Below are positions 417-58,124 of a stretch of DNA of 64,000 bases, one piece after another. Location of the stretch: NCBI RefSeq assembly GCF_001509835.1, contig NZ_JXTJ01000002.1, forward strand, positions 62,001 to 126,000, written 5' to 3'. The notes beneath the pieces were generated by a model that saw only the letters and a list, made by a program, of their open reading frames with translations, was not told the origin of the DNA and did not search any database. Source of the DNA: Allobosea sp. WAO (GTDB taxonomy: Bacteria > Pseudomonadota > Alphaproteobacteria > Rhizobiales > Beijerinckiaceae). The position numbers were made by a program, and so were the translations under genes. Every line of letters starts with the position of its first letter. Position 1 is the stretch's first letter.

Positions 417-441
417 AACGCTGCCCGACGCCTGCCGTTCC
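417..441 (-). promoter_or_regulatory. Perfect sigma-EcfG-type promoter for katE
   Basis: On the minus strand GGAAC (441-437), a 16-bp spacer and CGTT (420-417) match the alphaproteobacterial general-stress consensus exactly. It faces katE, whose start codon is at 350. Confidence 0.85.
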
Positions 442-884
442 CGCTATCATCTCGCCGATTGGCTTTCCTTGGCCGGGCCGGGAAACTCCTGAGGTCCCAT
501 ACCTCGCCTGCGTCATCCTCGACCGTCCGATCGCCCTTATGTTTGATCGGCCCGCACAAACGCGTTCCGCAGCAATTGCTTCAGTTGCTGCATGACAAGC
601 GCCCCTACAACTGGACGAGATGGCAGACTTCCCTGCGCAGACGCCGGCACAGATCACGCAACGAGCAGCTTTCGCCCCGGCAAGCCATCTCGACAGCTCT
701 TTCGAGCGTGGTCGGAGCCCAAACTGGAGCGACATACGAGAATTCGCTTGATCTGCGCGAGGGATACGAATTGGCTTGGTCTAGCCTCGACCATGGGTCG
801 CATAAGGAATCGGAACGGTCCAACCAATCACGCAGCGGCGCCGTAAGCAGACAATCATTTGCCGGTTATCCCGGCGCGGGCTTG
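442..884. other. Intergenic stretch, no supported gene
   Basis: Open frames exist on both strands, including a long plus-strand one beginning at 108, but they run antisense to katE or the kinase, have arginine- and serine-rich shadow composition and no convincing ribosome site. Apart from the katE promoter next to it I see nothing I can name. Confidence 0.5.
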
Positions 885-1904
885 CTATCGCTCGAGATCA
901 ACCAGCTTGACCTTGATCGTCACCTCCAAGCCATCGGAACCCCAGTTGTAGGCCATGGTTGCGCCGAGCTGAGAACGCGCAGCTCTTTCGACGAGCACGC
1001 TGCCAAAACCAGATGAGACGGGAGGTTCGACCACCAAGGGGCCACCACTCTCTTGCCATGTCAGATGAAGGCACGCCTGATCGGCAACCAGGGAAATCCG
1101 CACGGCTCCATTCTCGGCCGAAAGTGCGCCGTATTTTACGGCGTTCGTCGCCAGTTCGTGGAAAACCAGGGCCAACGAGGTTGCAGCGTTCGGGCCCACT
1201 ATCGCGTCGTTGCCTTCAATAACGACCCGTTGGCCCTGACTTCCTTGATAGGGTTCGAGCAGACGCGAGAGCAGCGACTTCAGCCCTCCTTCGCCAACTT
1301 CCTTCTTGGCAACAAAGGCATGCGCCCGATGCAAGGATTGGAGCCGGCTTTCGAGCTTCTCAGCGAAGACCTTGTTGGCGGGCTCGAACCTAGCCGCCAT
1401 TCGAACGAGGCTGTTGACCACGGTAAAGATGTTGGCGATGCGGTGCGAAAGCTCGCGAGCGATCAGCTCGCGTTGCTCCTCGGCGCGCCTGCGAGCGGTG
1501 ATATCGATATGTGCTCCAATCAGACGCAGAGCTGCCCCCAACTCGTCACGTGTGATCTCAGCTTTCGCGAGAATCCAGCGCGTCTGGCCGTCGCTTGGTC
1601 GGATGATCCGATACTCGACCTCATACTCCGTCGCCGGCCCGTTCACTGTCGTGAGAAAATGGCTCAGAACGCGCTCGCGGTCTTCCGGATGGATGCGTGC
1701 CACCCAAGCTTCATGAGATTCATGAGTCGCATCGGGCGGAAGGCCGTGCACGGCTAGGTATTCGGGCGAGCGTACGTTCTTGAACCTATTGCCACGTAGG
1801 TCGACCTCCAGGCCACCAATCTGGCCGATCCGTTGAATGCGAGCGAATTCTGCTTGCCGGGCCCGGAGGCTGCGCTCGGCGGTTTGGTTCGTATCGTTCG
1901 ACAT
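885..1904 (-). CDS. PAS-HWE sensor histidine kinase
   Basis: A 339-residue soluble kinase: an N-terminal PAS domain of the PAS_3 type (about 25-140, ending in a typical PAC segment), then an HWE-family core. The H-box ELSHRIANIF places the phospho-accepting His near residue 154; the N-box HELATNAVKYGAL is near 250 and the WQE signature near 283. HWE kinases in this class commonly feed PhyR-type regulators of the general stress response, which suits the surrounding promoters. There is no membrane segment, so it should sense a cytoplasmic cue. The start has no strong Shine-Dalgarno sequence and no response regulator lies next to it, so its partner is unknown. Confidence 0.92.
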   Translation of the reverse strand: MSNDTNQTAERSLRARQAEFARIQRIGQIGGLEVDLRGNRFKNVRSPEYLAVHGLPPDATHESHEAWVARIHPEDRERVLSHFLTTVNGPATEYEVEYRIIRPSDGQTRWILAKAEITRDELGAALRLIGAHIDITARRRAEEQRELIARELSHRIANIFTVVNSLVRMAARFEPANKVFAEKLESRLQSLHRAHAFVAKKEVGEGGLKSLLSRLLEPYQGSQGQRVVIEGNDAIVGPNAATSLALVFHELATNAVKYGALSAENGAVRISLVADQACLHLTWQESGGPLVVEPPVSSGFGSVLVERAARSQLGATMAYNWGSDGLEVTIKVKLVDLER

Positions 1905-2062
1905 GTGGTCCCGATCGCGCTCTCAGCAGCCTAATCGCTTACCTCCCTTCTCGGCAAAGTCATAAGACACATCCAGCGTTCCATTCCGCCCCCGCAGTCG
2001 CAACATCCGCAAGTCAAGGACCAGAGAGCGAACTGGAAGATGTATCTGCCGGGCGCGCGGCC

Positions 2063-2087
2063 GGAACCGGGCGTAGGCTGGGCCGTT
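2063..2087 (+). promoter_or_regulatory. Perfect sigma-EcfG-type promoter
   Basis: GGAAC (2063-2067), 16 bp, CGTT (2084-2087). The predicted transcript would begin near 2095, just before the GGAGG and ATG of the small gene at 2118. Confidence 0.85.
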
Positions 2088-2117
2088 GAGGCTTTGGGGG
2101 AAACAATGGAGGCACCC

Positions 2118-2306
2118 ATGCGTGATGGCCAAGGAAACAAGCTTTCTCCAGAGGAGCAGCAGCGCACGACGTCGATCCAAGGCGCGCCTGACAAGGATTC
2201 GCTGAAGAAGGTTTCCATCAACCCGGATGCCGACAAGGATACGGGCGAGGCCGACAAGCCCCGCGAGAAGCTCCCGGATATGCCCGCAGCCGGGGTCGGG
2301 GAATAG
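2118..2306 (+). CDS. Small hydrophilic stress protein, unknown function
   Basis: A 62-residue, highly charged, probably disordered protein with no membrane segment and no domain I recognise. The start at 2118 is preferred over the in-frame ATG at 2106 because GGAGG (2108-2112) sits 5 nt before it. A perfect sigma-EcfG-type promoter ends 30 nt upstream, so it is very likely a general-stress gene. Its acidic, lysine- and proline-rich make-up (for example SINPDADKDTGEADKPREK) resembles small desiccation- or stress-associated hydrophilins, but that is only a compositional likeness. The next small gene follows 28 nt downstream and may be co-transcribed. Confidence 0.72.
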   Translation: MRDGQGNKLSPEEQQRTTSIQGAPDKDSLKKVSINPDADKDTGEADKPREKLPDMPAAGVGE

Positions 2307-2334
2307 GTTCAACTCTGTGGATAGCTTCCCCCAA

Positions 2335-2553
2335 ATGGCCCGACAGCTCGCCAAAAGACAGTACGCCACAGAAGCGGAGATGCCGCGCTACGGCGAAATT
2401 CGGACAGCCGAAGAGCGTAAGACCGCAGTCTCTCTGATCCAGCATTTGTCAGGTGCGCCTGAAGATTGCGCAGACGAAGTCAGGCTGGACATGCTCGCCA
2501 CGGCCGTTGAAACGTGGGACGTAAAGCGCGCGCAACAACGCAAAGCCGGATAA
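2335..2553 (+). CDS. Small helical protein, ERKTAV family
   Basis: About 72 residues from the ATG at 2335; a shorter start at 2380 is also possible, and neither has a strong ribosome site. The core IRTAEERKTAV followed by a two-helix pattern ending DMLATAVETWD matches the proteins at 28534-28761 and 35312-35530 position by position, showing a real paralogous family in this window. The pattern also resembles the N-terminal helical hairpin of HigA-type antitoxins without the DNA-binding part. No function is known. It lies downstream of the sigma-EcfG-controlled gene at 2118 and may share its transcript. Confidence 0.65.
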   Translation: MARQLAKRQYATEAEMPRYGEIRTAEERKTAVSLIQHLSGAPEDCADEVRLDMLATAVETWDVKRAQQRKAG

Positions 2554-2660
2554 CTTCGGGCGCTAGGTCGCACATCCTGCTCATGCTCGGCCGGGATGCG
2601 ACGCGCGAAGCCGCCTTTCGTTCGAACTCGACCTCGCCGGCCTGCCAAATGGGGGATCAA

Positions 2661-2939
2661 ATGGCCGGCGACGCCGATATGAGCCGTGAAGAGATGGTGG
2701 TGCGCATCGCGATGCTGGAAGGAATTGTCTTTGCGCTCATCGAAGAACGTGCGCGCGAGGCGGGCGGATTATCGGACCTCAGGCTTCTCGCCCAGCGGAT
2801 CGGGGCAGCCGTCAACGAGCGCGCGGCCTGTATGCCTCCGGAGATGAAGGATGGTGTGCAGGCTCACTTCGCCTTCCTCCTCGAAATTTTGGAAGATCGA
2901 GTTGCGTCCGCCCCCACGGCGAGTACGGCAACCAGCTGA
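2661..2939 (+). CDS. Small hypothetical helical protein
   Basis: A 92-residue protein; GGGGG just before the ATG at 2661 favours this start over the in-frame ATG at 2649. The body is predicted mainly helical (EEMVVRIAMLEGIVFALIEE) with an alanine-, serine- and threonine-rich tail and no transmembrane span or signal peptide. In size and helical build it recalls the protein at 51990-52247, but I cannot show homology by eye. It follows the small-gene pair at 2118-2553 in the same direction. Function unknown. Confidence 0.65.
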   Translation: MAGDADMSREEMVVRIAMLEGIVFALIEERAREAGGLSDLRLLAQRIGAAVNERAACMPPEMKDGVQAHFAFLLEILEDRVASAPTASTATS

Positions 2940-3366
2940 TCACACCGCGATCTCAGGCTGGATAATTAGGCTGCAACCTGCCGCCGTCATCCGCTCATCG
3001 TACGCGTCGACGTGCGTCGAAAAGAGATCCCCATCCAGCTCTGAGAGGCCAAAGCCCCGCGCGGCACGGTAACCGGCACATCCGCAGCTCGCCCGATCGG
3101 CAGGGAGTAGCGAGGCTCCCTCCGACGGCGTGAGAGAGGCGAGTGGACACGAGCAGCACAGTGTCGCCGAGTGCATTGGCCACGCGCCGGCGCCACCTAC
3201 TGATAGACGCGGACCATCGGGTTGTGCGGCCATATTATTAGCGCGACTCTGGCTCGACGCCGGGGGCGCGCCGTTCAGGCCTGCTCGCCTTGTATCCGAT
3301 CGCCGGGTGATTAGAGAACAATAGCCCAGCTCCCGCGTTGGTACCCGACAAAATTGGGAGACTATC
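2940..3366. other. Intergenic stretch with a near-consensus promoter at its end
   Basis: No gene is supported here. The open frames on both strands lack ribosome sites and protein-like composition. The last part holds the promoter candidate at 3315-3339. Confidence 0.5.
3315..3339 (+). promoter_or_regulatory. Near-consensus sigma-EcfG-type promoter
   Basis: AGAAC (3315-3319), 16 bp, CGTT (3336-3339); one mismatch in the -35. It lies 28 nt before the GTG of the tiny membrane protein at 3367. Confidence 0.5.
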
Positions 3367-3483
3367 GTGCTCAGAATCCTTCTCCTCGGCGCAGCCGGCT
3401 ATGTGCTTGCGACACGCCCCGATCTTCGCGCTCGCCTCATCAATGCAGCGCGTGACCTGATGGACCGCAGGGCCGTCAGGTAA
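3367..3483 (+). CDS. 38-residue single-span membrane protein
   Basis: A very short gene starting with GTG at 3367, preceded by GGGAG at a 6-nt spacing. The product begins MLRILLLGAAGYVLATRP, a short hydrophobic span, and continues with a basic amphipathic helix (DLRARLINAARDLMDRRAVR). The good ribosome site and near-consensus stress promoter support a real gene despite its size. It belongs with the other tiny membrane proteins of the window (24751, 29877, 40198, 62780), though it shares no clear sequence with them. Function unknown; an effect on membranes or on a membrane partner is a guess. Confidence 0.6.
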   Translation: MLRILLLGAAGYVLATRPDLRARLINAARDLMDRRAVR

Positions 3484-3836
3484 CTGGCAAGACGGCGCCA
3501 GCCGTGCGGGCGTTTTGACGTACGGGCGAAAGAAGTCCTGTAGCCCCCCGCCCCTTGGGCGGAGGGCCTCTGACACGAGGCCAGGACTAGGCGCATCCGG
3601 ATACTTCCGGAAATTCACGGCTCGCGTTTGAAGCGTCAGAGCTTCAGGACGTCACTGGCGTCGTTGGTTGCACTCGATGCACCCGCCAGAATGTGTGGCG
3701 CGCTATGCCGCGCATCATGGGCACGATTGAGGCGTCGTAGCCCTGCGAACGACAGCTAGACGCAGAAGGCGCCCGGCAGTTCCGGACTGAAACATTTTGC
3801 AACGTTCACCCTCCCAAGCACGTCGGACCAAGGGCG
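3484..3836. other. Intergenic stretch, no supported gene
   Basis: No frame here combines a start, a ribosome site and protein-like composition. It ends at the promoter candidate that precedes the gene at 3885. Confidence 0.5.
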
Positions 3837-3861
3837 GGAACCCGCGCACCTGGCAAAGGTT
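3837..3861 (+). promoter_or_regulatory. Sigma-EcfG-like promoter, GGTT variant
   Basis: GGAAC (3837-3841), 16 bp, GGTT (3858-3861). One mismatch in the -10; 23 nt before the start at 3885. Confidence 0.5.
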
Positions 3862-3884
3862 GCTCCTCCTGGAGGATGCGCCGA

Positions 3885-4499
3885 ATGACGACGTCGAGCT
3901 CGCCTCTCATCGCCGAGTGGTCGCTACCGCCGAACACAACCCTCGGATCTTCGGTCAGATCGTTCAGCATTGAGCGGGAAATTCGCCGTCGCCTCCCATG
4001 GCCGGTGAGAAAATTCGTGCACGTTCAAGGCAACGTCGTGCACCTGCGCATGCCCCCTGACGGCATGGAGCTCTTCACGTCGACATCCCAGCAGGTCGAG
4101 AAAGCCATGGAAGGGAGCGCCACCTGGCCAGTCCTGCCGAGCGAGCTCGAAGATATTCTGGGAATCTCTTCGCGCGAACGTCACAAGTGGATGAAGGCAG
4201 GTCGTCTGCAGAGTGCCGGGACCAGGACCATCAAGCTCAGAGGACGCGCAAAAGCAGTCACCTTTCACGTCTTCGACCCACAGCACATCGAGGACATTCT
4301 TGATCGTGACCTGCCTGCGATCTGGCGCGAAGAGGATGCTGATGCCAGCTCGGACAATCGCCGGCGCGCCGCAGCGAAAGCCCGGCTCACCCGACAGCGC
4401 AAAGGCAAGCGATACGATGATGGTGCCTCCGAGGACGCAGATCCCAGCGTTGAACTCGAAGGCTGGGACGCTTTCGCGGCCGAAGATCTGCTGCGTTAA
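3885..4499 (+). CDS. Hypothetical protein with possible HTH segment
   Basis: A 204-residue protein; the ATG at 3885 is chosen because GGAGG (3871-3875) precedes it by 9 nt and would overlap the alternative ATG at 3876. Residues of the middle third (ELEDILGISSRERHKWMKA) look like the recognition part of a MerR- or excisionase-like helix-turn-helix, followed by a basic stretch and a second helical segment with HIEDILDRDLPAIW. The C-terminus is charged and probably disordered. A DNA-binding role is therefore possible, but no family is recognised. A GGTT-type stress promoter lies directly upstream. Confidence 0.75.
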   Translation: MTTSSSPLIAEWSLPPNTTLGSSVRSFSIEREIRRRLPWPVRKFVHVQGNVVHLRMPPDGMELFTSTSQQVEKAMEGSATWPVLPSELEDILGISSRERHKWMKAGRLQSAGTRTIKLRGRAKAVTFHVFDPQHIEDILDRDLPAIWREEDADASSDNRRRAAAKARLTRQRKGKRYDDGASEDADPSVELEGWDAFAAEDLLR

Positions 4500-4629
4500 T
4501 AGATCATCAGGAATTAGCCACCCAAATAGGAGTTTGCGGTTGGGTTCCCATCACGCCGACCAACCGCTTCGTGATTTGCATTTTCGATCCGATCTGCGAT
4601 TCTTTTACTTCGCACAAAGGAACGAATTC

Positions 4630-4803
4630 ATGATGGGCTTCTCCAACCGGCTGCGCCCCTACAACCCGATCACTCAGACCCTCGATCGCATTATTGAGGC
4701 AGAACGCCTCGATGCAGAAGCGCGAGCCGCTCGCGCGGCGCGGCGCAAATCGCGCGGGGATGTCGCCGCAACCCCAGGCCCTGCGACTGGTCCCGAACGC
4801 TGA
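4630..4803 (+). CDS. Small basic hypothetical protein
   Basis: A 57-residue protein starting MMGFSNRLRPYNPITQTL; AAAGG precedes the ATG by about 8 nt (a second ATG follows immediately at 4633). The first half looks helical, the middle is an Ala/Arg-rich run (AEARAARAARRKSRG), and the end is a Pro/Gly-rich tail. It is soluble and strongly basic, so nucleic-acid binding is conceivable but unproven. It sits between the possible HTH gene and a DUF1236 gene, all in one direction. Confidence 0.6.
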   Translation: MMGFSNRLRPYNPITQTLDRIIEAERLDAEARAARAARRKSRGDVAATPGPATGPER

Positions 4804-4830
4804 GTTTCTGGCCCGCCGACCAATCCAAAA

Positions 4831-4855
4831 GGAACATTACCAGCAGGGTGCAGTT
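4831..4855 (+). promoter_or_regulatory. Sigma-EcfG-like promoter, AGTT variant
   Basis: GGAAC (4831-4835), 16 bp, AGTT (4852-4855). One mismatch; 61 nt before the DUF1236 start. Confidence 0.4.
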
Positions 4856-4916
4856 CTTCGAGCACAGGGATAGCGAGGGGAAACCTTCGGCTTCACCGCG
4901 CACGAAGGAACATCCA

Positions 4917-5249
4917 ATGCTTAGGAATGCCCTCTTTGCCGCCGGGCTTGTTCTGTTGCCGGCGACCGCCATGGCCCAAAATCAGGGCCAGCCTAATGGC
5001 TTGCCGGACCCCCCGTCCATCCGCAGCGAACTTGCGCCGCGCTTCAAGCAGTATGTGGTTACGCAGCGCCCCACATCGTACGCTTACGCTGAGCCTCTCG
5101 CCGTCGGCACCGTGCTTCCGCAGCAGGGCGTTGTGTACCGCGAGGTGCCAGCCGAGTACGGCGTCAGCGGCTACCGATATTCCGTCGTGAACAATCGTAC
5201 GGTCCTGGTGGACCCAAATACCCGTCGTGTCGTCCAGATTATCGACTGA
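4917..5249 (+). CDS. DUF1236 family exported protein
   Basis: A 110-residue protein with a clear Sec signal peptide (MLRNALFAAGLVLLPATAMA, cleavage after AMA) preceded by AAGGA. The mature part has the DUF1236 layout: a proline-rich lead, then a compact domain around FKQYVVTQRPTSYAY and a final VLVDPNTRRVVQII strand. DUF1236 proteins are common in the rhizobial lineage and stand in the periplasm; their role is not established. The earlier in-frame ATG at 4848 would bury the signal peptide, so 4917 is preferred. A hairpin terminator follows at 5286. Confidence 0.88.
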   Translation: MLRNALFAAGLVLLPATAMAQNQGQPNGLPDPPSIRSELAPRFKQYVVTQRPTSYAYAEPLAVGTVLPQQGVVYREVPAEYGVSGYRYSVVNNRTVLVDPNTRRVVQIID

Positions 5250-5285
5250 CGAGGCGCGCAACACGCGCTGAATAATCCAGCTCTA

Positions 5286-5309
5286 GGCCCGCTCCTTTTG
5301 GAGTGGGTC
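5286..5309 (+). terminator. Hairpin terminator after DUF1236 gene
   Basis: Ten-base arms (5286-5295 and 5300-5309, with G-U wobble) around a TTTT loop, followed by TTTAG. Confidence 0.6.
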
Positions 5310-5363
5310 TTTAGCCTCGAGAGGCCGCGATGCCAGACGCGAGCGCTCTGGCGGCCGGTCACG

Positions 5364-5389
5364 GGAACTTTCCGAACCCAAGTCGGGTT
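5364..5389 (+). promoter_or_regulatory. Sigma-EcfG-like promoter, GGTT variant
   Basis: GGAAC (5364-5368), 17 bp, GGTT (5386-5389), 50 nt before the GlsB-type gene. One mismatch. Confidence 0.5.
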
Positions 5390-5438
5390 GTGAGATTTGG
5401 CGCCGGAGCTCCGGCAGGGCCACCAGCCGGAGTTCTCC

Positions 5439-5693
5439 ATGGGCATCATTTGGACGGTTATCATCGGATTTGTCGCCGGCGTCCTCGCCAAATTCCTGTC
5501 GCCAGGAGGGAATGAGCCGTCCGGTTTCATCCTCACAACGGTCCTAGGCATCGTAGGAGCCTTCGTGGCGACATTTCTGGGTCAGGCTCTGGGCTGGTAT
5601 CGGCCTGGTGAGGGAGCGGGCCTCATCGGGGCGGTAATCGGTGCTGTGCTGGTGCTGATGGTGTGGTCGATGATGAGCCGCCGCAGCGCCTAA
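5439..5693 (+). CDS. GlsB/YeaQ/YmgE family membrane protein
   Basis: An 84-residue membrane protein starting MGIIWTVIIGFVAGVLAKF, with three hydrophobic segments rich in glycine (GFILTTVLGIVGAFVATFLG and GLIGAVIGAVLVLMVW). This is the compact fold of the transglycosylase-associated GlsB/YeaQ/YmgE family, small inner-membrane proteins widely induced by stress. The ATG at 5439 has GGAG 8 nt upstream; an upstream in-frame start would add a non-homologous leader. It is followed 23 nt later by the YidB-type gene and preceded by a GGTT-type stress promoter, so the two form a likely stress operon. Confidence 0.9.
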   Translation: MGIIWTVIIGFVAGVLAKFLSPGGNEPSGFILTTVLGIVGAFVATFLGQALGWYRPGEGAGLIGAVIGAVLVLMVWSMMSRRSA

Positions 5694-5716
5694 ACTCAAC
5701 GTTGGGAGGCGAACTC

Positions 5717-6169
5717 ATGAGCAACGAAAATGGATTTCCGTCGATGACGGCTCTGCTCGGCCTGCTTGCGGTTGCGGGCTACCAGAACCGCGACAAGCTC
5801 GCGGAGTGGTTCGGTGGCGGTCAACAAGGCAAGCCGCCGCAGGACGCGCCAGCTGGCCTGGACAACGTCATGACAAGCAATCAGCAATCTACCTCAGGTG
5901 GCATCGGCGGGCTGCTCGGCAATGGCATTCAAGAGTTGATCGAGCGCTTCAAACAGGCCGGCCGCGGCGACGCTGCCGATTCATGGGTCCGCTCCGGCCC
6001 CAACCAGCAGATCGAGACCAATGACCTTGAGCAGGCTATCGGGCCTGACATCATGGATCGTCTCGCTTCTCAAACCGGTCTCAGCAGGGAGGAGATATTG
6101 GCTAGGCTCTCGAAGCAACTTCCGGAGGCTGTCGATCGCTACACCCCGGAGGGCAGAATTCCGGTTTAG
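5717..6169 (+). CDS. YidB-like DUF937 family protein
   Basis: A 150-residue protein with an excellent ribosome site (GGGAGG, 8 nt). The C-terminal half carries the DUF937/YidB pattern: GNGIQELIERFKQAGRGD, then DSWVRSGPNQQIETNDLEQA and a helical end with GLSREEILARLSKQLPEAVD. The N-terminal part is a low-complexity linker. The family's role is unknown. It shares an operon with the GlsB-type gene, and the gene at 6187 follows 17 nt later. Confidence 0.88.
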   Translation: MSNENGFPSMTALLGLLAVAGYQNRDKLAEWFGGGQQGKPPQDAPAGLDNVMTSNQQSTSGGIGGLLGNGIQELIERFKQAGRGDAADSWVRSGPNQQIETNDLEQAIGPDIMDRLASQTGLSREEILARLSKQLPEAVDRYTPEGRIPV

Positions 6170-6186
6170 CCCTGGCGAGAAGCCGC

Positions 6187-6495
6187 ATGCAGATCGACGA
6201 GAATGCGCTCGAGGCCGCGCGCTTGGCCTATTTGAGGGCGAGATATCCTGACGACCCTAACCAGGGCATACGCCCGCTAATGCGCGCGGCACTCCTCGCT
6301 TACGAAGCGGCCAAGCCAAAGGAGTCGGAGGGGCTTCAAAAGGCGGCCGAGGCTTGCCCGACCATTATCAAAGCAGGCCAGAAGCTGACCGAGGACCGAG
6401 TGAGCGGCACGGTCATTGTCGGCTGCTACGGCGAAGTGCCAGCATCAGAGTTCAAACGCTTGGCCAGCCTGCTCTCTCCGTCAGAAAACGAGTGA
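6187..6495 (+). CDS. Hypothetical helical protein
   Basis: A 102-residue protein starting MQIDENALEAARLAYLRARY. The first half (about 1-45) is a helical segment with an alanine-rich face, the second half has a short beta-like stretch (DRVSGTVIVGCYGEVPASEF). It has no signal peptide, membrane span or recognisable domain. It is only 17 nt downstream of the YidB-type gene in the same direction and is probably the last gene of that operon. Confidence 0.75.
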   Translation: MQIDENALEAARLAYLRARYPDDPNQGIRPLMRAALLAYEAAKPKESEGLQKAAEACPTIIKAGQKLTEDRVSGTVIVGCYGEVPASEFKRLASLLSPSENE

Positions 6496-6520
6496 TCCGC
6501 AGGCTGGGAAGATCGAGTCT

Positions 6521-6805
6521 TCACGACATGGTTTTCGCCTGTTCGGATCGCGGCGAGCATTGACCTTGTTCAAGCGGTAGCGCTGCATCGAGGATACGTG
6601 TCACCAGGGGAACGTCTTCGCCCTCTGCGCGAACCGATACCACCGACCGAGCTTTTTTGTGCTCGCTGGCGTGCCTTTCAGCGTCGGTTTCCGGCACGCC
6701 GGAATCCATTAGCGCACCCAGCACCCCTCCCGCTAGCGCCCCGGTCACTGCCCCCGACAGAAACCATCCTGTCGCGATGATCGGGCCGACGCCAGGGATT
6801 GTGAG
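6521..6805 (-). pseudogene. 3' remnant of a glycine-zipper stress protein
   Basis: About 95 codons match the middle and end of the glycine-zipper protein at 28894-29433: IPGVGPIIATGWFLSGAVTG, then GVLGALMDSGVPETDAE, SVVSVRAE and a final amphipathic part. Everything before this, including the N-terminal TRTITRSYDDY-type domain and the start of the zipper, is missing; the open frame runs on upstream into unrelated sequence. No start or ribosome site belongs to it. It is a 5'-truncated third copy of the family found also at 41146-41677. Confidence 0.65.
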
Positions 6806-7031
6806 CGCGCCGACCCTCCTCGAGTATGTCGCCGAGGAGCGCCGTCGCTCGGCTGAATACGAAGGCCGGAGCGTCTTTAGCTGGGAAGGGTCCGATGCGA
6901 CGCGAATGGAAAATCGACGGTGAACCGCCGGCGACTCGCACCGCATTTGGCCCGGGACAGGCTTGGCGACGTGGTCACAGACCGCGCCTACCGGCACGTG
7001 GCAATGCGCATGATGCTCTCTCGTTTTCTGA

Positions 7032-7056: not shown

Positions 7057-7095
7057 GAATGGGTACGCCCACCTCACGCTGAAAAGGAAACGACC

Positions 7096-7599: not shown

Positions 7600-7605
7600 C
7601 TGTCA

Positions 7606-51487: not shown

Positions 51488-51601
51488 TCGCCGGCCCGGG
51501 CTGCGCGCTGAGCCCCCCGTCGCGACCGCTGTTCCCGAGTTCCGAGCCAGGAAGCTCAGGCCGTGACCGTGGGAAGCGTCGATCCAGTCGGAGACTCGTG
51601 C

Positions 51602-51811
51602 TCAGCGGCAGACTACGTTCTGCCCTCTCATCGTGCAGGTACTGACAGGACGATGTTCGTCGGGCGGCGGGTCATAGGTTCCTGCTCCGACCGGCACGTA
51701 GGTGTGCCCATCGCTTTGCATCGGGTCGACGCCTGAAGCCCCTGACCAACTGCTCACGCCCGCACATCCCGCCAGCAGCAGGCAGTACATCACCGTGGCC
51801 AGCTTCTTCAT
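51602..51811 (-). CDS. Small lipoprotein
   Basis: A 69-residue lipoprotein: MKKLATVMYCLLLAGCAGVS carries a typical signal with lipobox LAGC. The mature part is short, Ser/Gly/Pro-rich, with two more cysteines near the C-terminus (VSTCTMRGQNVVCR) that may form a disulphide. A G-rich stretch precedes the ATG at 51811. Function unknown. Confidence 0.75.
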   Translation of the reverse strand: MKKLATVMYCLLLAGCAGVSSWSGASGVDPMQSDGHTYVPVGAGTYDPPPDEHRPVSTCTMRGQNVVCR

Positions 51812-51932
51812 GCCTCGCCCCCCGATTCCGCGTGATCTTGCCGGCATGCGCGCGGGATGTCACCGCCTCTTGAACGGAGCGCACTTCGGCCCCCCGCTCG
51901 AGCCTTTGCTGCGTCGTCCATTGCCGGCCTTC

Positions 51933-51957
51933 GGAACCGTCAGGACGATTGCGGGTT
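51933..51957 (+). promoter_or_regulatory. Sigma-EcfG-like promoter, GGTT variant
   Basis: GGAAC (51933-51937), 16 bp, GGTT (51954-51957), 32 nt before the gene at 51990. Confidence 0.55.
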
Positions 51958-51989
51958 AGGAGGGCAGCTGAGGAACAGGAGCCGATCAC

Positions 51990-52247
51990 ATGGCGGACGG
52001 AGCCGACAGTGTAGACGGACCCGAGATGGAACAGATCAAGATCGTCCTGAACACGCTCTATCTATGCATCGCGTTCGCAATGACACACATCGCGAAACAT
52101 AATGGGGCCCAGGCGGCCGTCGATTTCAAGGCCGAGCTGTTGTCGGCTCTCAAAAGCGGCGACCTCAACATGGCCCTGATGGAAGTAACGAAGACTTTTG
52201 ACTTCGTCATCGCAAAGATCGAGGCGCTCGGTCAGCCCGAAGCGTAA
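51990..52247 (+). CDS. Small hypothetical helical protein
   Basis: An 85-residue soluble protein; AGGAG precedes the ATG at 51990. It has helices EQIKIVLNTLYLCIAFAMTH, AAVDFKAELLSALKSGDLN and MEVTKTFDFVIAKIEALG. No domain is recognised. A GGTT-type stress promoter with a short leader suggests stress control. Confidence 0.72.
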   Translation: MADGADSVDGPEMEQIKIVLNTLYLCIAFAMTHIAKHNGAQAAVDFKAELLSALKSGDLNMALMEVTKTFDFVIAKIEALGQPEA

Positions 52248-52358
52248 CGCCTCATCGCTCCCGCGCCCTCTTTCCTCGCCTGTAGAGCACCGCTGGAAGC
52301 CGGCATTTCGATCCGACCGCGCCCATCGTAGGGAAGCGGCAGCGACCATCGCACCTCT

Positions 52359-52850
52359 TCAGTCCAGCTTCATCTTGGCCGTCTTGTTCGCATAGTCTTT
52401 CTTGGGATCGACCCCGACTAGCAACTTGATCCCGGCCAGCAAGCTCCGTTCGTCCTCCCAGACCTCCGCTTCCTCTACATCGAAACGCAGCAGAGCAAGC
52501 TTGGGGTCGCCCTTGCCTTGCTCGTACCAGGCGGCGACGAACCTGTTCCACAACCGGTCGATCACCACCCTGTCGTTATCGAGCGTCAATCGGCCACCGA
52601 TGGTCGCGAAGAGCGCATGCCCCTTCGAGGCAAAGGAAATGAACGCGTCTTCGCTGCCCGACAGGGCCTCGACAAGCGCGGTGTCCTTGGCGGAGAAAAT
52701 CCAGAGAGGTCCTTGATCGGCTTCGCCGTCGATCTGCACGGTCATTGGCCGGAGCAAATGGTCGGGCCGGTTGGCGAGCCCGAGCATCACCGTCATGTCT
52801 GAGCGGAGAGCGGCCCAGAGCTTTGCTTCGAGTTCCTGCGGCGTGGGCAT
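52359..52850 (-). CDS. General-stress PPOX-fold FMN-binding protein
   Basis: A 163-residue protein of the pyridoxamine-5-phosphate-oxidase-like split barrel, in the general-stress group (COG3871 type): MTVQIDGEADQGPLWIFSAK, DAFISFASKGHALFATIGG, RLTLDNDRVVIDRLWNRFVA and the C-terminal LLRFDVEEAEVWEDE. Relatives bind flavin and respond to stress. A GGTT-type stress promoter lies on the same strand 36 nt upstream. Confidence 0.93.
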   Translation of the reverse strand: MPTPQELEAKLWAALRSDMTVMLGLANRPDHLLRPMTVQIDGEADQGPLWIFSAKDTALVEALSGSEDAFISFASKGHALFATIGGRLTLDNDRVVIDRLWNRFVAAWYEQGKGDPKLALLRFDVEEAEVWEDERSLLAGIKLLVGVDPKKDYANKTAKMKLD

Positions 52851-52885
52851 GGCGTCGCGCTCCGATCGAGTGTTGTTCGAAGCAC

Positions 52886-52911
52886 AACCGTTCTACCGAT
52901 CCGCAGGTTCC
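52886..52911 (-). promoter_or_regulatory. Sigma-EcfG-like promoter, GGTT variant
   Basis: Minus strand GGAAC (52911-52907), 17 bp, GGTT (52889-52886), before the PPOX gene. Confidence 0.55.
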
Positions 52912-52973
52912 GGGGAGTTGGAGGGACATTCACGACGTACTCGCCTGCACGCGTTGCCTGAGTGACGACAGCG

Positions 52974-54896
52974 TCAGGCTGCGTCCAGTATCCGGTTTGC
53001 TGTGACGGTAGCGAGCGCCTTCTCCAGATCAGACTGCCAGAACGGTTTGCTGAGACGGGTAATGCTGCTCGGAATGTCGCGAGGAAGCTCGGCATATCCG
53101 GTTGCGAGGATGATCGGCAGCGCTGGCCAGTTCGTCGACACGGCGGCGATCAACTGGGCCCCGCTGATCTCGGGCATCGCATGGTCGGTGATCAGCAGAT
53201 CAAACTGCTCGCCATTCGAGAGCCGAGCGAGGGCTTCCTTCGCCGACGAGGCCTCGACGACCTCGTGGCCCAGATCCTCGAGCAGTACGACGGTGTTCAT
53301 CAGCACGAGGGCATCATCGTCGACAGCCAGCACCTTGAGACGCGGGGCCGGCTTCTCGACCGGCTCGACCGGTGCGGCCATCTGCTGCGGCTCGGCAGCA
53401 TCGGAGTGCCGTGCCGCCGGGAGCCAGATTTCCACCGTGGTCCCCTGCCCCGCCTCGCTGCTGATAGCGAGGCGCCCGCCGGACTGCTCGGCCATGCCGT
53501 GGACCATCGACAGGCCGAGCCCAGTGCCCTTGCCGACTCCCTTTGTCGTGAAGAAGGGTTCCACCGCCTTGGCCAAGGTCTCGGCGTCCATGCCGGCGCC
53601 GGTGTCGCTGATCGAAATCCTAAGATAATCACCGGTGGCCAGGCCATGAGAGTTCGAGGCCGTCACGGTCTCGCAGCGCCCCGCCATGCGCACCGCGCCG
53701 CCCTCAGGCATCGCATCGCGTGCATTCAGGACGAGGTTGAGGAGTGCCGTCTCGAGCTGGTTCTGATCGGCCTGGGCCGGCGGCAGAGAGGCCGGGAAAT
53801 CGGTCTCGATCCGCACCAGTGGGCCGATCGAGCGCTGGAGCAGATCTTTCAGGCTGGCTATCATGGCATTGAGAGGCACCGCCTGCAGCGCCAGTTCCTG
53901 CTTGCGCGCAAAGGCCAGCATGCGCTGTGTCAGCAGCACGCCTCGCTTGGCGCCGCTCATCGCGTTTTCGATCAGGCTCGCCTGCCTCGGATCGGAGATC
54001 TGCCGGCTGACCAGTTCCAGGCTGCCGACCACTGCAGTGAGCAGGTTGTTGAAATCGTGCGCGATGCCGCCTGTGAGCTGTCCGATCGCCTCGATCTTCT
54101 GGGCCTGCAGGAGCGCCTGCTGCGATTTCTCCAGCTCTTCCTGGACCTTGCGGCGGTCGGTCAGATCGCGGGTGATCTTGGCGAACCCGATGATCTCGCC
54201 ACTGTCGTCGCGGATCGGATCGATCACGACATGGGCCCAGAAGGGCCGCCCGTCCTTGCGCAGCCGCCAGCCCTCCTTCTCGAAGCTCCCGCTGTGGAAA
54301 GCTGTCGCCAGCGCCTTGGCGGGCTCTCCGTTCGCGCGATCCTCCGGCGTGTAGAAGATCGAGAAGTGCCGGCCGACGATCTCCTCGCGGCGATAGCCCT
54401 TGATCCGTTCGGCGCCGAGGTTCCAGTTGGTGACGCGCCCCTCCTTGTCGAGCATGTAGATCGCATAGTCGGTCACGCCCTGGACGAGCAGGCGAAACTG
54501 CTCCTCGGAGCGCTTCAAGGCCAGCTCGGCTTCACGTCTTTCGGTCAGATCCCGCGTGATCTTGGCGTATCCCAGAACTCTTCCCGTGTCGGGATTGAAG
54601 ATCGGGTCGATGACGACATGGGCCCAGAACCGCGTGCCGTCCTTGCGCATTCGCCAGCCCTCGGCCTCGAAGCGCCCCTCTCGCTCCGCGGTGCGCAGTG
54701 CGCGCTGCGGCAGCCCCGCAGCACGGTCCTCCGGCGTATAGAAGTTCTCGAAGGACTGGCCGATGATCTCGGTGTCGTCGTAGCCCTTGAAGCGCCGCGC
54801 GCCGGGGTTCCAGCTCGCCACGCGCCCGTCCGCGGTGAGCAGGTAGATCGCATAATCGGTGACGGATTCGACGAGCAGACGATAGCGGTCGCTCAT
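52974..54896 (-). CDS. PAS-PAS hybrid histidine kinase with receiver
   Basis: A 640-residue soluble kinase from the ATG at 54896. Two PAS domains (about 5-125 and 130-250) are near-copies of each other: VESVTDYAIYLLTADGRVAS against VQGVTDYAIYMLDKEGRVTN, an internal duplication. Then HisKA with GGIAHDFNNLLTAVVGSLEL, HATPase (LNLVLNARDAMPEGG, GTGLGLSMVHG) and a receiver with Asp in LLITDHAMPEISG. Both PAS domains have TRDL ends typical of flavin- or haem-free sensors. An open antisense frame covers the whole gene but is a shadow. Confidence 0.94.
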   Translation of the reverse strand: MSDRYRLLVESVTDYAIYLLTADGRVASWNPGARRFKGYDDTEIIGQSFENFYTPEDRAAGLPQRALRTAEREGRFEAEGWRMRKDGTRFWAHVVIDPIFNPDTGRVLGYAKITRDLTERREAELALKRSEEQFRLLVQGVTDYAIYMLDKEGRVTNWNLGAERIKGYRREEIVGRHFSIFYTPEDRANGEPAKALATAFHSGSFEKEGWRLRKDGRPFWAHVVIDPIRDDSGEIIGFAKITRDLTDRRKVQEELEKSQQALLQAQKIEAIGQLTGGIAHDFNNLLTAVVGSLELVSRQISDPRQASLIENAMSGAKRGVLLTQRMLAFARKQELALQAVPLNAMIASLKDLLQRSIGPLVRIETDFPASLPPAQADQNQLETALLNLVLNARDAMPEGGAVRMAGRCETVTASNSHGLATGDYLRISISDTGAGMDAETLAKAVEPFFTTKGVGKGTGLGLSMVHGMAEQSGGRLAISSEAGQGTTVEIWLPAARHSDAAEPQQMAAPVEPVEKPAPRLKVLAVDDDALVLMNTVVLLEDLGHEVVEASSAKEALARLSNGEQFDLLITDHAMPEISGAQLIAAVSTNWPALPIILATGYAELPRDIPSSITRLSKPFWQSDLEKALATVTANRILDAA

Positions 54897-55091
54897 CGTG
54901 GACAGGGCTTCGACTTCCGGCACTTAGCGGCCCTCAATGGCTCATCAGGCCAGCAAACGCCGACGCAGCCGGATAGTTCCCACAAGTTGGTCGAGCTTTC
55001 GAAAGCAACGGAGCCGACCAGCCGACGAAGATTATGCCGGGCGCTGAAACCCCGACTTTGAACGAGCGTTGTCACAGGCAATCCGCGCGTT

Positions 55092-55116
55092 GGAACCGAT
55101 CTGCTCTTCTCCTGTT
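55092..55116 (+). promoter_or_regulatory. Sigma-EcfG-like promoter, TGTT variant
   Basis: GGAAC (55092-55096), 16 bp, TGTT (55113-55116), 26 nt before the YihY-type start. Confidence 0.45.
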
Positions 55117-55141
55117 GGGAACCCAGCTCGCGAGAGGAAAC

Positions 55142-56329
55142 ATGGCCGCTCAAATGGATCTGACATCACTCCGGCATGCTGTTTTCAAGAGGCATCGGCG
55201 TGGCCCCCACTCGGCGGCGTCGAACACACGGGGACGCTCGACGCGACCGTTGCCCGCAAATCCCGATGGAGGTTCAACCGGCGTGATGACTGCCGTGGCA
55301 GGCGCGTTGGGCCTGATGTTGGCATTTCTCCTGGCGAGGGGTGTTGGAGCCCGAAGCGCCCGCGACCGGCATTATGACAGCAAAGCCGCCTCGCGCAGCG
55401 GCCAGGGAAACCAAGCCTCCGCCCCCACCGAAATACCATTCCCGGGGTGGAAGGAGATCTTTCGGCGCACGTACCTCGAAGTCGGGCGCGACCGCGTCCT
55501 AGCTGTCGCTGCCGGTGTGACCTTCTATGGCCTGTTGGCACTTTTCCCAGCACTGACGGCTTTCGTGTCGCTTTATGGCCTCGCGGCTGATCCCGGAACC
55601 ATCGCCGGCCACCTCGCAATGTTGGATGGCTTCCTGCCGGCGGGCGCTCTCGATTTCCTCCGCGATGAGGTTGCTCGAATCCGCGGCAGCGGCGGCGCAA
55701 CGCTCGGCATGGCATTCTTCATCAGTCTCGCTGTTGCGATCTGGAGCGCCAATGCCGGCGTGAAGGCCTTGTTCGACGCGCTAAACGTCGCTTATGGCGA
55801 GGATGAGAAGCGGGGCTTCTTCAAGCTCAACGCAATCTCGCTCGCCTTCACCATCGGGATACTGCTGTTTCTCCTGACAGCCCTGGGAGCGATCGCGGTG
55901 CTCCCCGTGGCTCTCGACTATCTCTATCTCGGCGCCTTCAGCGAGTGGCTCATCTCGGTCGGGCGCTGGCCCGTGCTGTTCATCGTCCTTATGGCCGCTC
56001 TCGCCATTCTTTATCGGCTTGGCCCGAGCCGTGACGATGCCCAATGGCGCTGGGTCAGCCCAGGCGCCCTCTTCGCCGCAATTTCCTGGGTTGCGGGCTC
56101 GATCGCCTTTTCTTGGTACGTCGCGAATTTCGCCGACTATAATAAGACTTACGGCACGATCGGCGCTGTGATCGGCTTGCTGACGTGGATCTGGCTCTCC
56201 GCGACGATCCTGCTCATCGGAGCGGAACTGAACTCCGAGGCCGAGCGACAGACAGATCGAGACACGACGAAGGGCCCGCCACTGCCTATCGGCATGCGTG
56301 GGGCCGATGCCGCAGACCGAAAGGACTGA
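55142..56329 (+). CDS. YihY/BrkB-family inner membrane protein
   Basis: A 395-residue protein from the ATG at 55142 (AGAGGA upstream). After an N-terminal span (about 44-62) and a linker comes the YihY core: EVGRDRVLAVAAGVTFYGLL, ALFPALTAFVSLYGL, VAIWSANAGVKALFDALNVA, and NKTYGTIGAVIGLLTWIWLS followed by LLIGAELNSE, the usual ending. Six spans are predicted in the core. The family is of unknown transport role. A TGTT-type stress promoter is possible upstream. Confidence 0.93.
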   Translation: MAAQMDLTSLRHAVFKRHRRGPHSAASNTRGRSTRPLPANPDGGSTGVMTAVAGALGLMLAFLLARGVGARSARDRHYDSKAASRSGQGNQASAPTEIPFPGWKEIFRRTYLEVGRDRVLAVAAGVTFYGLLALFPALTAFVSLYGLAADPGTIAGHLAMLDGFLPAGALDFLRDEVARIRGSGGATLGMAFFISLAVAIWSANAGVKALFDALNVAYGEDEKRGFFKLNAISLAFTIGILLFLLTALGAIAVLPVALDYLYLGAFSEWLISVGRWPVLFIVLMAALAILYRLGPSRDDAQWRWVSPGALFAAISWVAGSIAFSWYVANFADYNKTYGTIGAVIGLLTWIWLSATILLIGAELNSEAERQTDRDTTKGPPLPIGMRGADAADRKD

Positions 56330-56358
56330 CCGACAAGGTTGTTGCGTGGTCGACGCCC

Positions 56359-56586
56359 CTAATGCCCATCGAGGTTCAGGGTCACCGAATAAACTTCCGC
56401 GCCTGCGGAGTTCTTCACGGTGACCGCGAGTTCCATATGATCACCGTTCGGGAGCTTTTCCTGGTTCAACCCGGATAGGAGTTCCTTGGCGGCGTTCTTC
56501 GCGGCCTGATCGTCGGGCAGGTCAGTGCCCTCATCGTCCAGCTCGACATGTCCGCCGTCTCGGGTGTGGAAGAAGTACTTGGGCAT
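56359..56586 (-). CDS. DUF6894 family protein
   Basis: A 75-residue protein starting MPKYFFHTRDGGHVELDDEG, the characteristic opening of DUF6894, then TDLPDDQAAKNAAKELLSGL and a C-terminal strand pair. Many rhizobial genomes carry numerous copies; the role is unknown. A GGAAC element with a poor -10 (CATT) lies upstream at 56595-56619, too weak to claim. Confidence 0.92.
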   Translation of the reverse strand: MPKYFFHTRDGGHVELDDEGTDLPDDQAAKNAAKELLSGLNQEKLPNGDHMELAVTVKNSAGAEVYSVTLNLDGH

Positions 56587-56628
56587 GTCTGTGAAATGCG
56601 TTTCACAGTCCGGTGTTCCGACGCAATC

Positions 56629-57366
56629 TCAAATTTTGGAGCCTCGTCTCAGGTGCAGATAGTTGGGATCGAATTCGGCCAGCTCGCACAGGCCGTTCCA
56701 GTCAAGAATGGTCAGCCGGCTTGAACGGACCCGAACCAGCCCAGCCTGCCGGATTTCGCGCAGCTTCTTGTTCATGTGGACGGTGGACAGCCCGAGCGCA
56801 TCGGCAATTTCGGACTGTGTGAGAGGCAGCTCGCATGTGACGCCGTCGGATAGCCCGATCGCGGTCATCTTGGTGATGAACTCGCAGAACAGATGCGCGA
56901 TGCGGCTCGGGGCAGAACGCCGGCCGATTCCGACCATCCATTCGCGATATATGGAGGCCTCAACAAGGGTCTCGCGCCAGAACGCTTCGGCGATCCGGTA
57001 ATAGGATCGCGTCAAGGACTTGACCGCCTCATGGGGTATGAAGCCAACGGTCGCAGGGGTCAGCGTTCCCAGATTGTGATCCATCTGCTCGACGAGCAGA
57101 GAGTGAATATCCGGAATGTCGCCTGGAAGGTGCAGAGACAGGATCTGGCGCTGCCCGTCGCCGACAATCTTGTAACGGCAGACCAGCCCTTCCGAGACGA
57201 GGCAGCACTGCTTGGTGCGCTCACCTTCGCTGACGATGTCCTGGCCGCCCTCGAAGCGCTTCAGGGTCAAAGGCAGACGAAGCAGCTGTTCACGCTCTTC
57301 GGACGGAAGGGGGGAGCTGGTCTCGAGCTTGCGAACCAGTCCTTGAAGATACTGTTCTTTGTCCAT
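56629..57366 (-). CDS. Crp/Fnr-family transcriptional regulator
   Basis: A 245-residue regulator from the ATG at 57366. The cyclic-nucleotide-binding-like barrel (LPLTLKRFEGGQDIVSEGER ... GLVCRYKIVGDG ... LHLPGDIPDIHSL) is followed by a dimer helix and a winged HTH, LPLTQSEIADALGLSTVHMN and KKLREIRQAGLVRV. No Fnr-type N-terminal cysteines are seen, so it does not sense oxygen by an iron-sulfur cluster. Targets unknown. Confidence 0.92.
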   Translation of the reverse strand: MDKEQYLQGLVRKLETSSPLPSEEREQLLRLPLTLKRFEGGQDIVSEGERTKQCCLVSEGLVCRYKIVGDGQRQILSLHLPGDIPDIHSLLVEQMDHNLGTLTPATVGFIPHEAVKSLTRSYYRIAEAFWRETLVEASIYREWMVGIGRRSAPSRIAHLFCEFITKMTAIGLSDGVTCELPLTQSEIADALGLSTVHMNKKLREIRQAGLVRVRSSRLTILDWNGLCELAEFDPNYLHLRRGSKI

Positions 57367-57576
57367 CGGCCCTCTTCCGAGTGCGGCGTCAGAACGCTTA
57401 CGATCCGGCGCCTGCACGCCCTATCAGACGCGTATCCCAAGCGTTTGTTGCAGGCGCGATGGAGCTGGGCGCAACCGACAGTTAACCATCATCGGCAGCA
57501 TTTGAACTAAATGCGGCATGCATCGGAACGATCGCCCTCGCAGCGAATTGCTCGGCGACCAGCGAGGGACTGTTCG

Positions 57577-57660
57577 ATGCGGTACGGCGTTTCAATTGAA
57601 TTCTGGCTCTTTCTTGCACTGGTGCTCAATCTCGCGCTCTCGCTCGCGATAAACCTCTGA
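57577..57660 (+). CDS. Possible 27-residue membrane protein
   Basis: From the ATG at 57577 (GAGGGA upstream) the frame encodes MRYGVSIEFWLFLALVLNLA then LSLAINL, a single hydrophobic helix in the same size class as the tiny proteins at 29877 and 40198, again with Trp-Leu early. A GGAAC element upstream lacks a proper -10. A longer version from the ATG at 57511 is possible. Low certainty. Confidence 0.38.
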   Translation: MRYGVSIEFWLFLALVLNLALSLAINL

Positions 57661-57700
57661 ATGGGCATGCGAACTCCGTCAGCGGAGGTCGGCACCGCCG

Positions 57701-58070
57701 CTAGCTTGCCCCCTCGAACGTGATCGAAGCCAGCGTACCGTTCGGACGATCATGATATTCGAGCCGCGCGCCCAGGCTCCTCGACATCGCGGCGATAGTC
57801 TTGCCGCCGAGACCACTCCCCTTAGCCCTGCCGTTGCCGGTCCAGCCGATGCCATCGTCGCCAACGCTCAGGGTAGGCGAAGCGCCGGATCTCTTCATTG
57901 GCCCTGGTTAGAGCCTCAGTCCGCTGCTGGGCGTGCTGTTCGAGGCCGACATCGAGGGCAGCGACCTCGTTTCGGGCGGCACTGATCTCGCGCGTGTAGC
58001 GTGCGATCGTCCAAAACGCCGCGGCAGCGAACGGCGAAACCTGCAAATCCGCGAACTCACCCGCCAGCAA
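57701..58070 (-). pseudogene. Decayed sensor histidine kinase
   Basis: Two frames hold pieces of one kinase. Upstream (58070-57860) reads SPFAAAAFWTIARYTREISA and VGLEQHAQQRTEALTRANEE, the membrane-proximal end and coiled linker of a CHASE3-type kinase; then, in another frame, SVGDDGIGWTGNGRAKGSGL, GGKTIAAMSRSLGARLEYHD and a normal end at 57701. The H-box and most of the ATPase domain are missing, as are the start and first half. An internal deletion plus frameshift killed the gene. Confidence 0.75.
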
Positions 58071-58098
58071 CGAACCGACGCAGAAAGATGATGCTCCG

Positions 58099-58124
58099 GG
58101 AACCTAAGGCATCCACGAACCGTT
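58099..58124 (+). promoter_or_regulatory. Perfect sigma-EcfG-type promoter for DUF296 gene
   Basis: GGAAC (58099-58103), 17 bp, CGTT (58121-58124), 42 nt before the start at 58167. Confidence 0.86.

What the first reader, a model, noticed from the sequence alone, without database searches (positions are those of the whole stretch)
417..58124. Seventeen perfect general-stress promoters in 64 kb
GGAAC, 16 or 17 bp, CGTT occurs exactly at 417-441(-), 2063, 7032, 7958(-), 14392, 21904, 24692, 24874, 29992(-), 35188(-), 35706, 36327, 38021(-), 43060, 44233, 45291(-) and 58099. Chance would give about one (nine fixed bases, two spacers, two strands, equal base use). Nearly all sit within 70 nt of a start codon on the correct strand. 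About a dozen more have one mismatch, mostly GGTT. I infer an accessory stress island whose genes were gathered or retained as a regulon of EcfG.
Basis: partly seen in the sequence, partly recalled or inferred. Interest (0 to 1): 0.82.

Follow-up and report, generated by a model that had tools for sequence, protein, structure and literature searches.

The report
Stress-promoter genes on an inserted island
A block of about 103,000 bases inserted into one gene of an alphaproteobacterium carries many stress-type genes, a good part of them behind what looks like the switch sequence of the host's own master stress regulator, so stress tolerance may travel as a ready-wired package.

Summary
In detail: 18 perfect GGAAC-N16/17-CGTT sites (17 listed plus 54956-54980 -), against 0.84 in shuffles and 1.32 per 64 kb in the rest of the genome. 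Eleven end 20-70 nt before a called gene (0.5 expected); seven precede smaller ORFs. DUF892 homologues keep the boxes while spacers diverge: 26 of 30 loci, reversed control 0.

The accessory-island reading is supported and can be delimited. The window lies inside a ~102.6-kb insert that splits comM at its Walker-A codons, with a large serine recombinase at one end and an imperfect repeat (13/15) at both. GC falls from 0.67 to mostly 0.60-0.63. The contig has no NepR or PhyR/EcfG match; the switch lies on C3. The window carries four HRXXN kinases.

Similar gene sets sit reshuffled in other site clusters: 57 of 70 window genes have homologues there, 6 of 70 in hand-picked comparison DNA.

EcfG dependence and mobility are inferred. 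I rate it a new, large variant of a known kind: stress islets wired to a host sigma factor.

The parts
1..64000 (.). Whole window = contig C12:62001-126000, inside an insert at about C12:43503-146062 that splits comM
417..441 (-). perfect EcfG-type site, 66 nt before catalase
2063..2087 (+). perfect site, 30 nt before a 62-aa ORF (72% in G012)
7032..7056 (+). perfect site, 39 nt before DUF892 gene; conserved in the genus
7958..7982 (-). perfect site; only a 26-aa ORF at 65 nt (weakest case)
14392..14417 (+). perfect site, 28 nt before a gene with a weak catalase match (below Pfam cut-off)
21904..21928 (+). perfect site, 41 nt before a gene with a weak DUF883_C match
24692..24716 (+). perfect site, 34 nt before a 34-aa hydrophobic ORF
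24874..24899 (+). perfect site, 39 nt before DUF2171 gene
29992..30016 (-). perfect site, 31 nt before a 27-aa hydrophobic ORF
35188..35213 (-). perfect site, 22 nt before a 96-aa ORF
35706..35730 (+). perfect site, 35 nt before 61-aa gene
36327..36351 (+). perfect site, 29 nt before transglutaminase-like gene
38021..38045 (-). perfect site, 28 nt before lipocalin gene
43060..43085 (+). perfect site, 35 nt before L,D-transpeptidase gene
44233..44257 (+). perfect site, 45 nt before a 97-aa GTG ORF (62-75% matches in relatives)
45291..45315 (-). perfect site, 31 nt before a 57-aa ORF
58099..58124 (+). perfect site, 42 nt before PCC-domain gene
3837..3861 (+). GGTT-variant site, 23 nt before gene 3885-4499
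5364..5389 (+). GGTT-variant site, 49 nt before Transgly_assoc gene
29799..29823 (-). GGTT-variant site, 45 nt before PepSY gene; homologues in 4 of 5 other clusters keep a site at 42-47 nt
42276..42300 (+). GGTT-variant site before DJ-1/PfpI gene
45810..45834 (+). GGTT-variant site, 105 nt before cox operon; G010 homologue has one at 123 nt
51933..51957 (+). GGTT-variant site before 85-aa gene; homologue on C2 keeps a site
52886..52911 (-). GGTT-variant site before Pyrid_ox_like gene
63857..63881 (-). GGTT-variant site before a low-scoring 50-aa ORF
61010..61034 (+). CATT-variant site before Ku gene; Ku homologues in G010, G012 and G037 have SGTT sites at 24-25 nt, the one on C41 none
885..1904 (-). 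PAS-HWE histidine kinase, HRIAN
8084..9205 (-). receiver-HWE kinase, HRIKN
30977..32290 (+). GAF-HWE kinase, HRVKN
38184..38534 (+). single-domain response regulator
38531..40060 (-). PAS-PAS-HWE kinase, HRVKN
7096..7599 (+). DUF892 gene
15686..19474 (+). Fe-S / FAD / molybdopterin dehydrogenase operon
25255..27003 (+). TPP enzyme (three TPP_enzyme domains)
28894..29753 (-). YflT + PepSY pair; 40828-41677 holds a related pair
45940..51487 (+). CtaG / c-type cytochrome / CoxB / CtaD oxidase operon
52974..54923 (-). hybrid PAS histidine kinase (HisKA type)
58641..59957 (-). glucose/sorbosone-dehydrogenase-like gene
61068..61868 (+). Ku

Best explanation
The window is cargo of a ~102.6-kb genomic island that a large serine recombinase placed in the Walker-A codons of comM. 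The cargo is rich in stress-type genes (catalase, Ku, DUF892, redox and envelope proteins, an extra terminal oxidase, small ORFs). Many carry their own promoter for the host's general-stress sigma factor EcfG. The contig carries no NepR, PhyR or EcfG, so the island plugs into the host switch; its four HRXXN kinases may add inputs to PhyR. Related genes recur reshuffled in other site-rich clusters of the same and related genomes, about half of those with a promoter here keeping one there; many also lie on a Bosea plasmid, there without a promoter cluster. Shown: motif, positions, split comM, shared gene pool. Inferred: EcfG dependence, kinase-to-PhyR flow, past mobility.
For: 18 sites against 0.84 in shuffles and 1.32 at the genome rate. 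Position before genes, P 2e-13. Footprinting: 26 of 30 DUF892 loci, reversed control 0 of 30. A site is found before 17 of 33 homologues when the window gene has one, 10 of 73 when it has none (Fisher 8e-5). One NepR, one clear PhyR and an ECF sigma factor with a HisKA_2 kinase at C3, and a CGTT site 107 nt before nepR. Split comM, serine recombinase and 13/15 repeat. GC step on both sides. Shared genes: 57 of 70 against 6 of 70. Bosea sp. Tri-49 plasmid region: 16 of 70. Families and variant -10 boxes (Ku, PRC-barrel, GGTT, CATT) also stand in the measured S. melonis list (passages).
Against: No expression data. Seven of 18 sites rest on small ORFs. LDT homologues have a site in only 6 of 25 loci. 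The DUF892 loci also show the motif on the opposite strand upstream in 6 of 30. No SGTT site was found before phyR on its own strand. None of the four HWE kinases is listed behind a site. Comparison stretches were picked by hand after the site list was seen, so their lack of sites is not an independent control. The Bosea plasmid region has one CGTT and two GGTT sites against one reversed. The insert's right part (C12:132-146 kb) has GC about 0.66 and no sites, and further recombinase genes lie inside, so it is probably composite. In G012 comM is also interrupted, yet no site is listed within 70 kb of that comM half, so comM is a general landing site, not a mark of stress islands.
Confidence: 0.8

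Rival explanations
1. The sites are a by-product of base composition or coding bias in a low-GC region.
For: The island is 5-7 GC points below the chromosome.
Against: Dinucleotide shuffles of the same window give 0.84. Low-GC stretches in the same insert (C12:45-60 kb) and on C2 (30-60 kb) hold none. Boxes persist in homologues whose spacers differ.
Confidence: 0.02
2. An older chromosomal stress neighbourhood: genes drew together by selection for joint regulation, and the comM insert is incidental to it.
For: G010 and G012 hold similar clusters away from comM; G010's comM is whole.
Against: The window is wholly inside the comM insert. Gene order is scrambled between genomes beyond short blocks. 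DUF892 has no match in 9 of 41 genomes and several copies in others.
Confidence: 0.15
3. The sites are read by another ECF sigma factor with a similar consensus, not by EcfG.
For: A second protein matches PhyR_sigma2 above cut-off at C7:118603, so an EcfG paralogue is possible.
Against: The nepR-ecfG operon itself stands behind such a site, and the motif is the published EcfG one (passages).
Confidence: 0.1

Closest known systems
Stress survival islet SSI-1 of Listeria monocytogenes
   Same: An accessory block of stress genes, all said to depend on the host's general stress sigma factor SigB (passage of PMC5541211).
   Different: SSI-1 is 8.7 kb with five genes and no mobility factors. This insert is ~103 kb with many genes and its own serine recombinase, in another phylum with the PhyR-NepR-EcfG switch.
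EcfG regulons of Sphingomonas melonis, Methylobacterium extorquens, Sinorhizobium meliloti
   Same: Same promoter type (GGAAC and CGTT with variants, 16-17 nt) and, for S. melonis, overlapping families: catalase, Ku, PRC-barrel, CoxSML-type dehydrogenase, general stress protein 26 (its kinship to the window's Pyrid_ox_like gene is recalled), Crp-like regulator (passages).
   Different: In the S. melonis table the targets bear numbers from #0072 to #3509. Here 21 of the 141 listed perfect sites lie in one insert of 1.7% of the genome. I saw no such island mentioned in the passages shown.
Bosea sp. Tri-49 plasmid unnamed1 (NZ_CP017947.1, 407893-451776)
   Same: Homologues of 16 of 70 window genes, including the cox operon (CtaD 88%), GSDH, Crp, YflT/PepSY, and DUF892 with a CGTT site.
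   Different: Plasmid-borne; only one CGTT and two GGTT sites in 44 kb, so no promoter cluster.
Islands integrated in comM (recalled: AbaR-type islands of Acinetobacter; not fetched)
   Same: Same target gene.
   Different: Those are recalled to move by transposition genes; here a large serine recombinase and a Walker-A target are seen. Two searches were run: one search matched 'comm' as a word start and is of little use; one search returned one paper, an Acinetobacter pilus study, seen as a listing only.

Membership tests
EcfG-type promoter | -35 with AAC (GGAAC), 16-17 nt, -10 CGTT | tested here: met
   18 perfect sites; consensus in passages of PMC8103513 and PMC4814048
EcfG-type promoter | lies shortly upstream of a gene, same strand | tested here: met
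   11 of 18 at 20-70 nt of called genes; 18 of 18 with small ORFs
EcfG-type promoter | transcription lost in an ecfG mutant; start just after -10 | not testable with these tools
   no RNA data
Host general stress switch | PhyR, NepR and EcfG encoded together | tested here: met
   C3:42.6-44.4 kb; Pfam NepR, PhyR_sigma2 + PhyR_sigma-like + receiver, Sigma70_r2/r4
Host general stress switch | both units behind stress-dependent promoters | tested here: inconclusive
   CGTT site 107 nt before nepR-ecfG; no SGTT site seen before phyR on its strand
PhyR-activating HRXXN kinases | HWE/HisKA_2 domain with HRXXN | tested here: met
   4 of 4 window HWE proteins have HRXXN by eye
PhyR-activating HRXXN kinases | phosphorylates PhyR | not testable with these tools
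   needs a phosphotransfer assay
Site-specific genomic island | splits a target gene that is whole in relatives | tested here: met
   25 of 30 comM loci examined keep the N half beside the C half; own, G012, G014, G019 and G037 do not (G037 has only 580 bp of contig there); other genomes were not given loci
Site-specific genomic island | recombinase at one end | tested here: met
   Resolvase + Recombinase + Zn_ribbon protein starting 115 bases from the junction
Site-specific genomic island | direct repeats at the ends | tested here: met
   15-bp repeat, 13 of 15 equal, 8-base identical core
Site-specific genomic island | excises as a circle | not testable with these tools
   needs PCR or reads
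Integrative conjugative element | relaxase and mating-pair genes | tested here: inconclusive
   none among the proteins scanned; not all proteins of the insert were scanned

The most novel reading that the evidence does not exclude
In this genus the accessory part of the general stress response circulates as genes that often carry their own EcfG promoter and pile up on mobile and chromosomal islands. Being addressed to a box that alphaproteobacteria share, such an island would work at once in any host with PhyR-NepR-EcfG, and it adds its own HRXXN sensors to the switch.
Probability: 0.45. Interest if true: 0.75.

Novelty: new variant of a known kind. Interest (0 to 1): 0.6.

Why it matters
Sigma-factor regulons are usually drawn as scattered host genes. 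Here a sizeable share of the genome's perfect EcfG-type sites (21 of 141 listed) sits on one delimited insertion of 1.7% of the genome, so how a global stress regulon grows by gene transfer becomes testable. The recurring gene pool also gives a list of uncharacterised stress proteins and small ORFs found with this promoter.

Tried and rejected
A repABC plasmid origin was considered: PF03428 finds no RepC in the genome, and the insert lies in a contig whose flanks have GC 0.66-0.68. No tRNA was found in the window or in five stretches, L112, L113, L115, L116 and L188, so tRNA targeting was dropped in favour of comM. One search scanned loci in one orientation only and undercounted (16 of 30 for DUF892, 4 of 30 for LDT); one search turned them and replaces it. 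A FAT-GUY reading of the single-domain response regulator 38184-38534 was considered from recall and not borne out by eye. The genome-contig scan with the GSDH protein returned many distant taxa and did not name the genus. Perfect sites on those 80 loci were near control level (32 against 28), so clustering is not a property of GSDH neighbourhoods. The genus is not established; Bosea is a guess. The 14 comparison stretches of this genome and four of G010/G012 were chosen by hand after the site list had been seen; they serve for GC and gene content, not as a fair test of site density.
Full report
Observation. The pattern GGAAC-N16/17-CGTT occurs 18 times in the window, the 17 reported plus 54956-54980 (-); 100 shuffles gave a mean of 0.84 and a maximum of 4. 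In the whole genome (6,125,776 bases, 42 contigs) it occurs 143 times (102 with 16 nt, 41 with 17), the reversed pattern 94 times. The rest of the genome thus has 1.32 per 64 kb, and 18 has a Poisson P of 6.6e-15. Fourteen hand-picked 20-kb stretches of the same genome held no perfect site and three GGTT variants; they were chosen after the site list had been seen, so the genome-wide count, not they, is the control.

Position. Of the 18 sites, 11 end 20-70 nt before a called gene on the same strand, where 0.5 would be expected (P 2e-13). One of 18 lies inside a called gene although 74% of the window is coding. The seven others have an ORF of 26-97 aa starting 22-65 nt downstream, each with some match in another cluster; that of 7958(-) is weak. 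The site at 2063 falls inside an over-long call; a 62-aa ORF 30 nt downstream is 72% identical in genome G012. Among 43 one-mismatch hits, 15 distinct places lie before a called gene of any score; eight of these are GGTT. GGTT and CATT boxes also occur in the measured Sphingomonas melonis list (passages of PMC6599016).

Conservation of the boxes. DUF892 has a match in 32 of 41 genomes of the genus. Of the 30 loci fetched, 26 have GGAAC-N16/17-SGTT upstream, 24 of them CGTT, mostly 37-46 or 74-78 nt before the aligned start (three at 24-27, one at 200), with differing spacers; the reversed motif was found in 0 of 30, the motif on the other strand in 6 of 30. For the L,D-transpeptidase 6 of 25 loci of at least 50% identity have it, four of them among the six at 70% or more. 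Over all window genes and nine cluster regions, a homologue has a site in 17 of 33 pairs when the window gene has one and in 10 of 73 when it has not (pairs of at least 35% identity, not independent; Fisher P 8e-5).

The switch. The genome has one NepR. PhyR and an ECF sigma gene lie beside it, with a HisKA_2 kinase, at C3:41.0-44.4 kb. PhyR_sigma2 also matches a protein on C7 above cut-off (a possible EcfG paralogue) and weakly one on C41, none on C12. A CGTT site lies 107 nt before nepR; none of the SGTT kind was seen before phyR on its strand. The window's scanned proteins include no PhyR, NepR or sigma factor but four HWE kinases, all with HRXXN by eye, the type described for PhyR input (passage of PMC8103513). 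None of the four is listed behind an EcfG-type site.

The island. Contig C12 has GC 0.66-0.68 up to 43 kb, mostly 0.60-0.63 over 43-132 kb (higher at the cox operon), and about 0.66 after. At 42603-43499 lies the C-terminal part of comM (Mg_chelatase and its C domain), at 146036-146701 its N-terminal part (ChlI). A whole homologue in genome G017 aligns to both, and the two alignments overlap by 14 bases. The junctions share a 15-bp repeat, 13 of 15 equal, with the 8-base core ATGAACGG in the Walker-A codons. A large serine recombinase starts 115 bases inside the left end. The insert is thus about 102.6 kb and contains the whole window; 21 of the 141 listed sites fall in it. Of 30 comM loci examined, 25 are whole across the site, while own, G012, G014, G019 and G037 lack the adjoining half (G037 has only 580 bp of contig there); G014 has a recombinase 46% identical at the same place. 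The site is therefore reused. G012's stress cluster is elsewhere (3.77-3.83 Mb), and no site is listed within 70 kb of its comM half. Two more recombinase genes and a TIR protein lie in the left flank of the insert and a SMODS gene in the right; the right part has chromosome-like GC, so the insert is probably composite.

The gene pool. Regions picked for their sites (C3 also for NepR) were compared with the window. Of 70 window genes, 57 have a homologue in nine such regions (348 kb), against 6 of 70 in 20 comparison stretches (400 kb, hand-picked, two of them C12 flank). One G010 region of 75 kb alone has 40. Order is scrambled beyond short blocks such as the cox operon and the molybdopterin dehydrogenase operon. 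The same genome has smaller clusters on C2 and C41 with paralogues. A Bosea sp. Tri-49 plasmid region has 16 of the 70, but only one CGTT and two GGTT sites; 31 kb of S. meliloti pSymB has 8 of the 70, likewise with one and two.

Comparison and limits. In Listeria, SSI-1 genes all depend on SigB and the islet lacks mobility genes (passages of PMC5541211). The present insert would work in a like way but is over ten times larger, has a recombinase, and uses a different switch. Paper searches on EcfG or RpoE2 with genomic island, regulon cluster, horizontal gene transfer, plasmid, Bosea and gene clusters listed no paper whose title or shown abstract start describes an EcfG island; only open-licence papers are held, and I saw passages of five and listings of the rest. 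EcfG dependence, kinase function and mobility are inferences. The genus is not known from a named record.

Noticed in passing
C12:144763-145650 (outside window; L116:18763-19650 -): SMODS nucleotidyltransferase gene, with a 431-aa gene without Pfam match next to it, close to the right comM junction; looks like a CBASS-type defence pair.
   Followed up: partly
C12:56833-57441 (L115:14833-15441 +): TIR-domain protein near the left end of the insert; two further serine recombinase-type genes lie at C12:51859-54795.
   Followed up: partly
window 24751-24855 + and 29877-29960 -: Hydrophobic ORFs of 34 and 27 aa directly after perfect sites, with matches in other stress clusters: possible EcfG-controlled membrane miniproteins.
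   Followed up: partly
window 63237-63506 - and C12:130877-131143: Two small proteins sharing an LDxVSGG-like stretch near the start; the first has a weak Bacteriocin_IIc match below cut-off.
   Followed up: no
L089 (contig CANKHC010000035.1): Contig labelled Candidatus Marinimicrobia holds five perfect sites in 11.5 kb, four of them 32-126 nt before called genes; perhaps a misbinned alphaproteobacterial contig.
   Followed up: partly
G000:C41:40-64 kb (L204, L205): A cluster of six 16-nt sites adjoins genes that look like phage genes by eye.
   Followed up: no
L257, S. meliloti pSymB 1018737-1050004: GSDH homologue beside a cox operon and a BrkB homologue, with one CGTT and two GGTT sites; part of the window's gene set.
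   Followed up: partly
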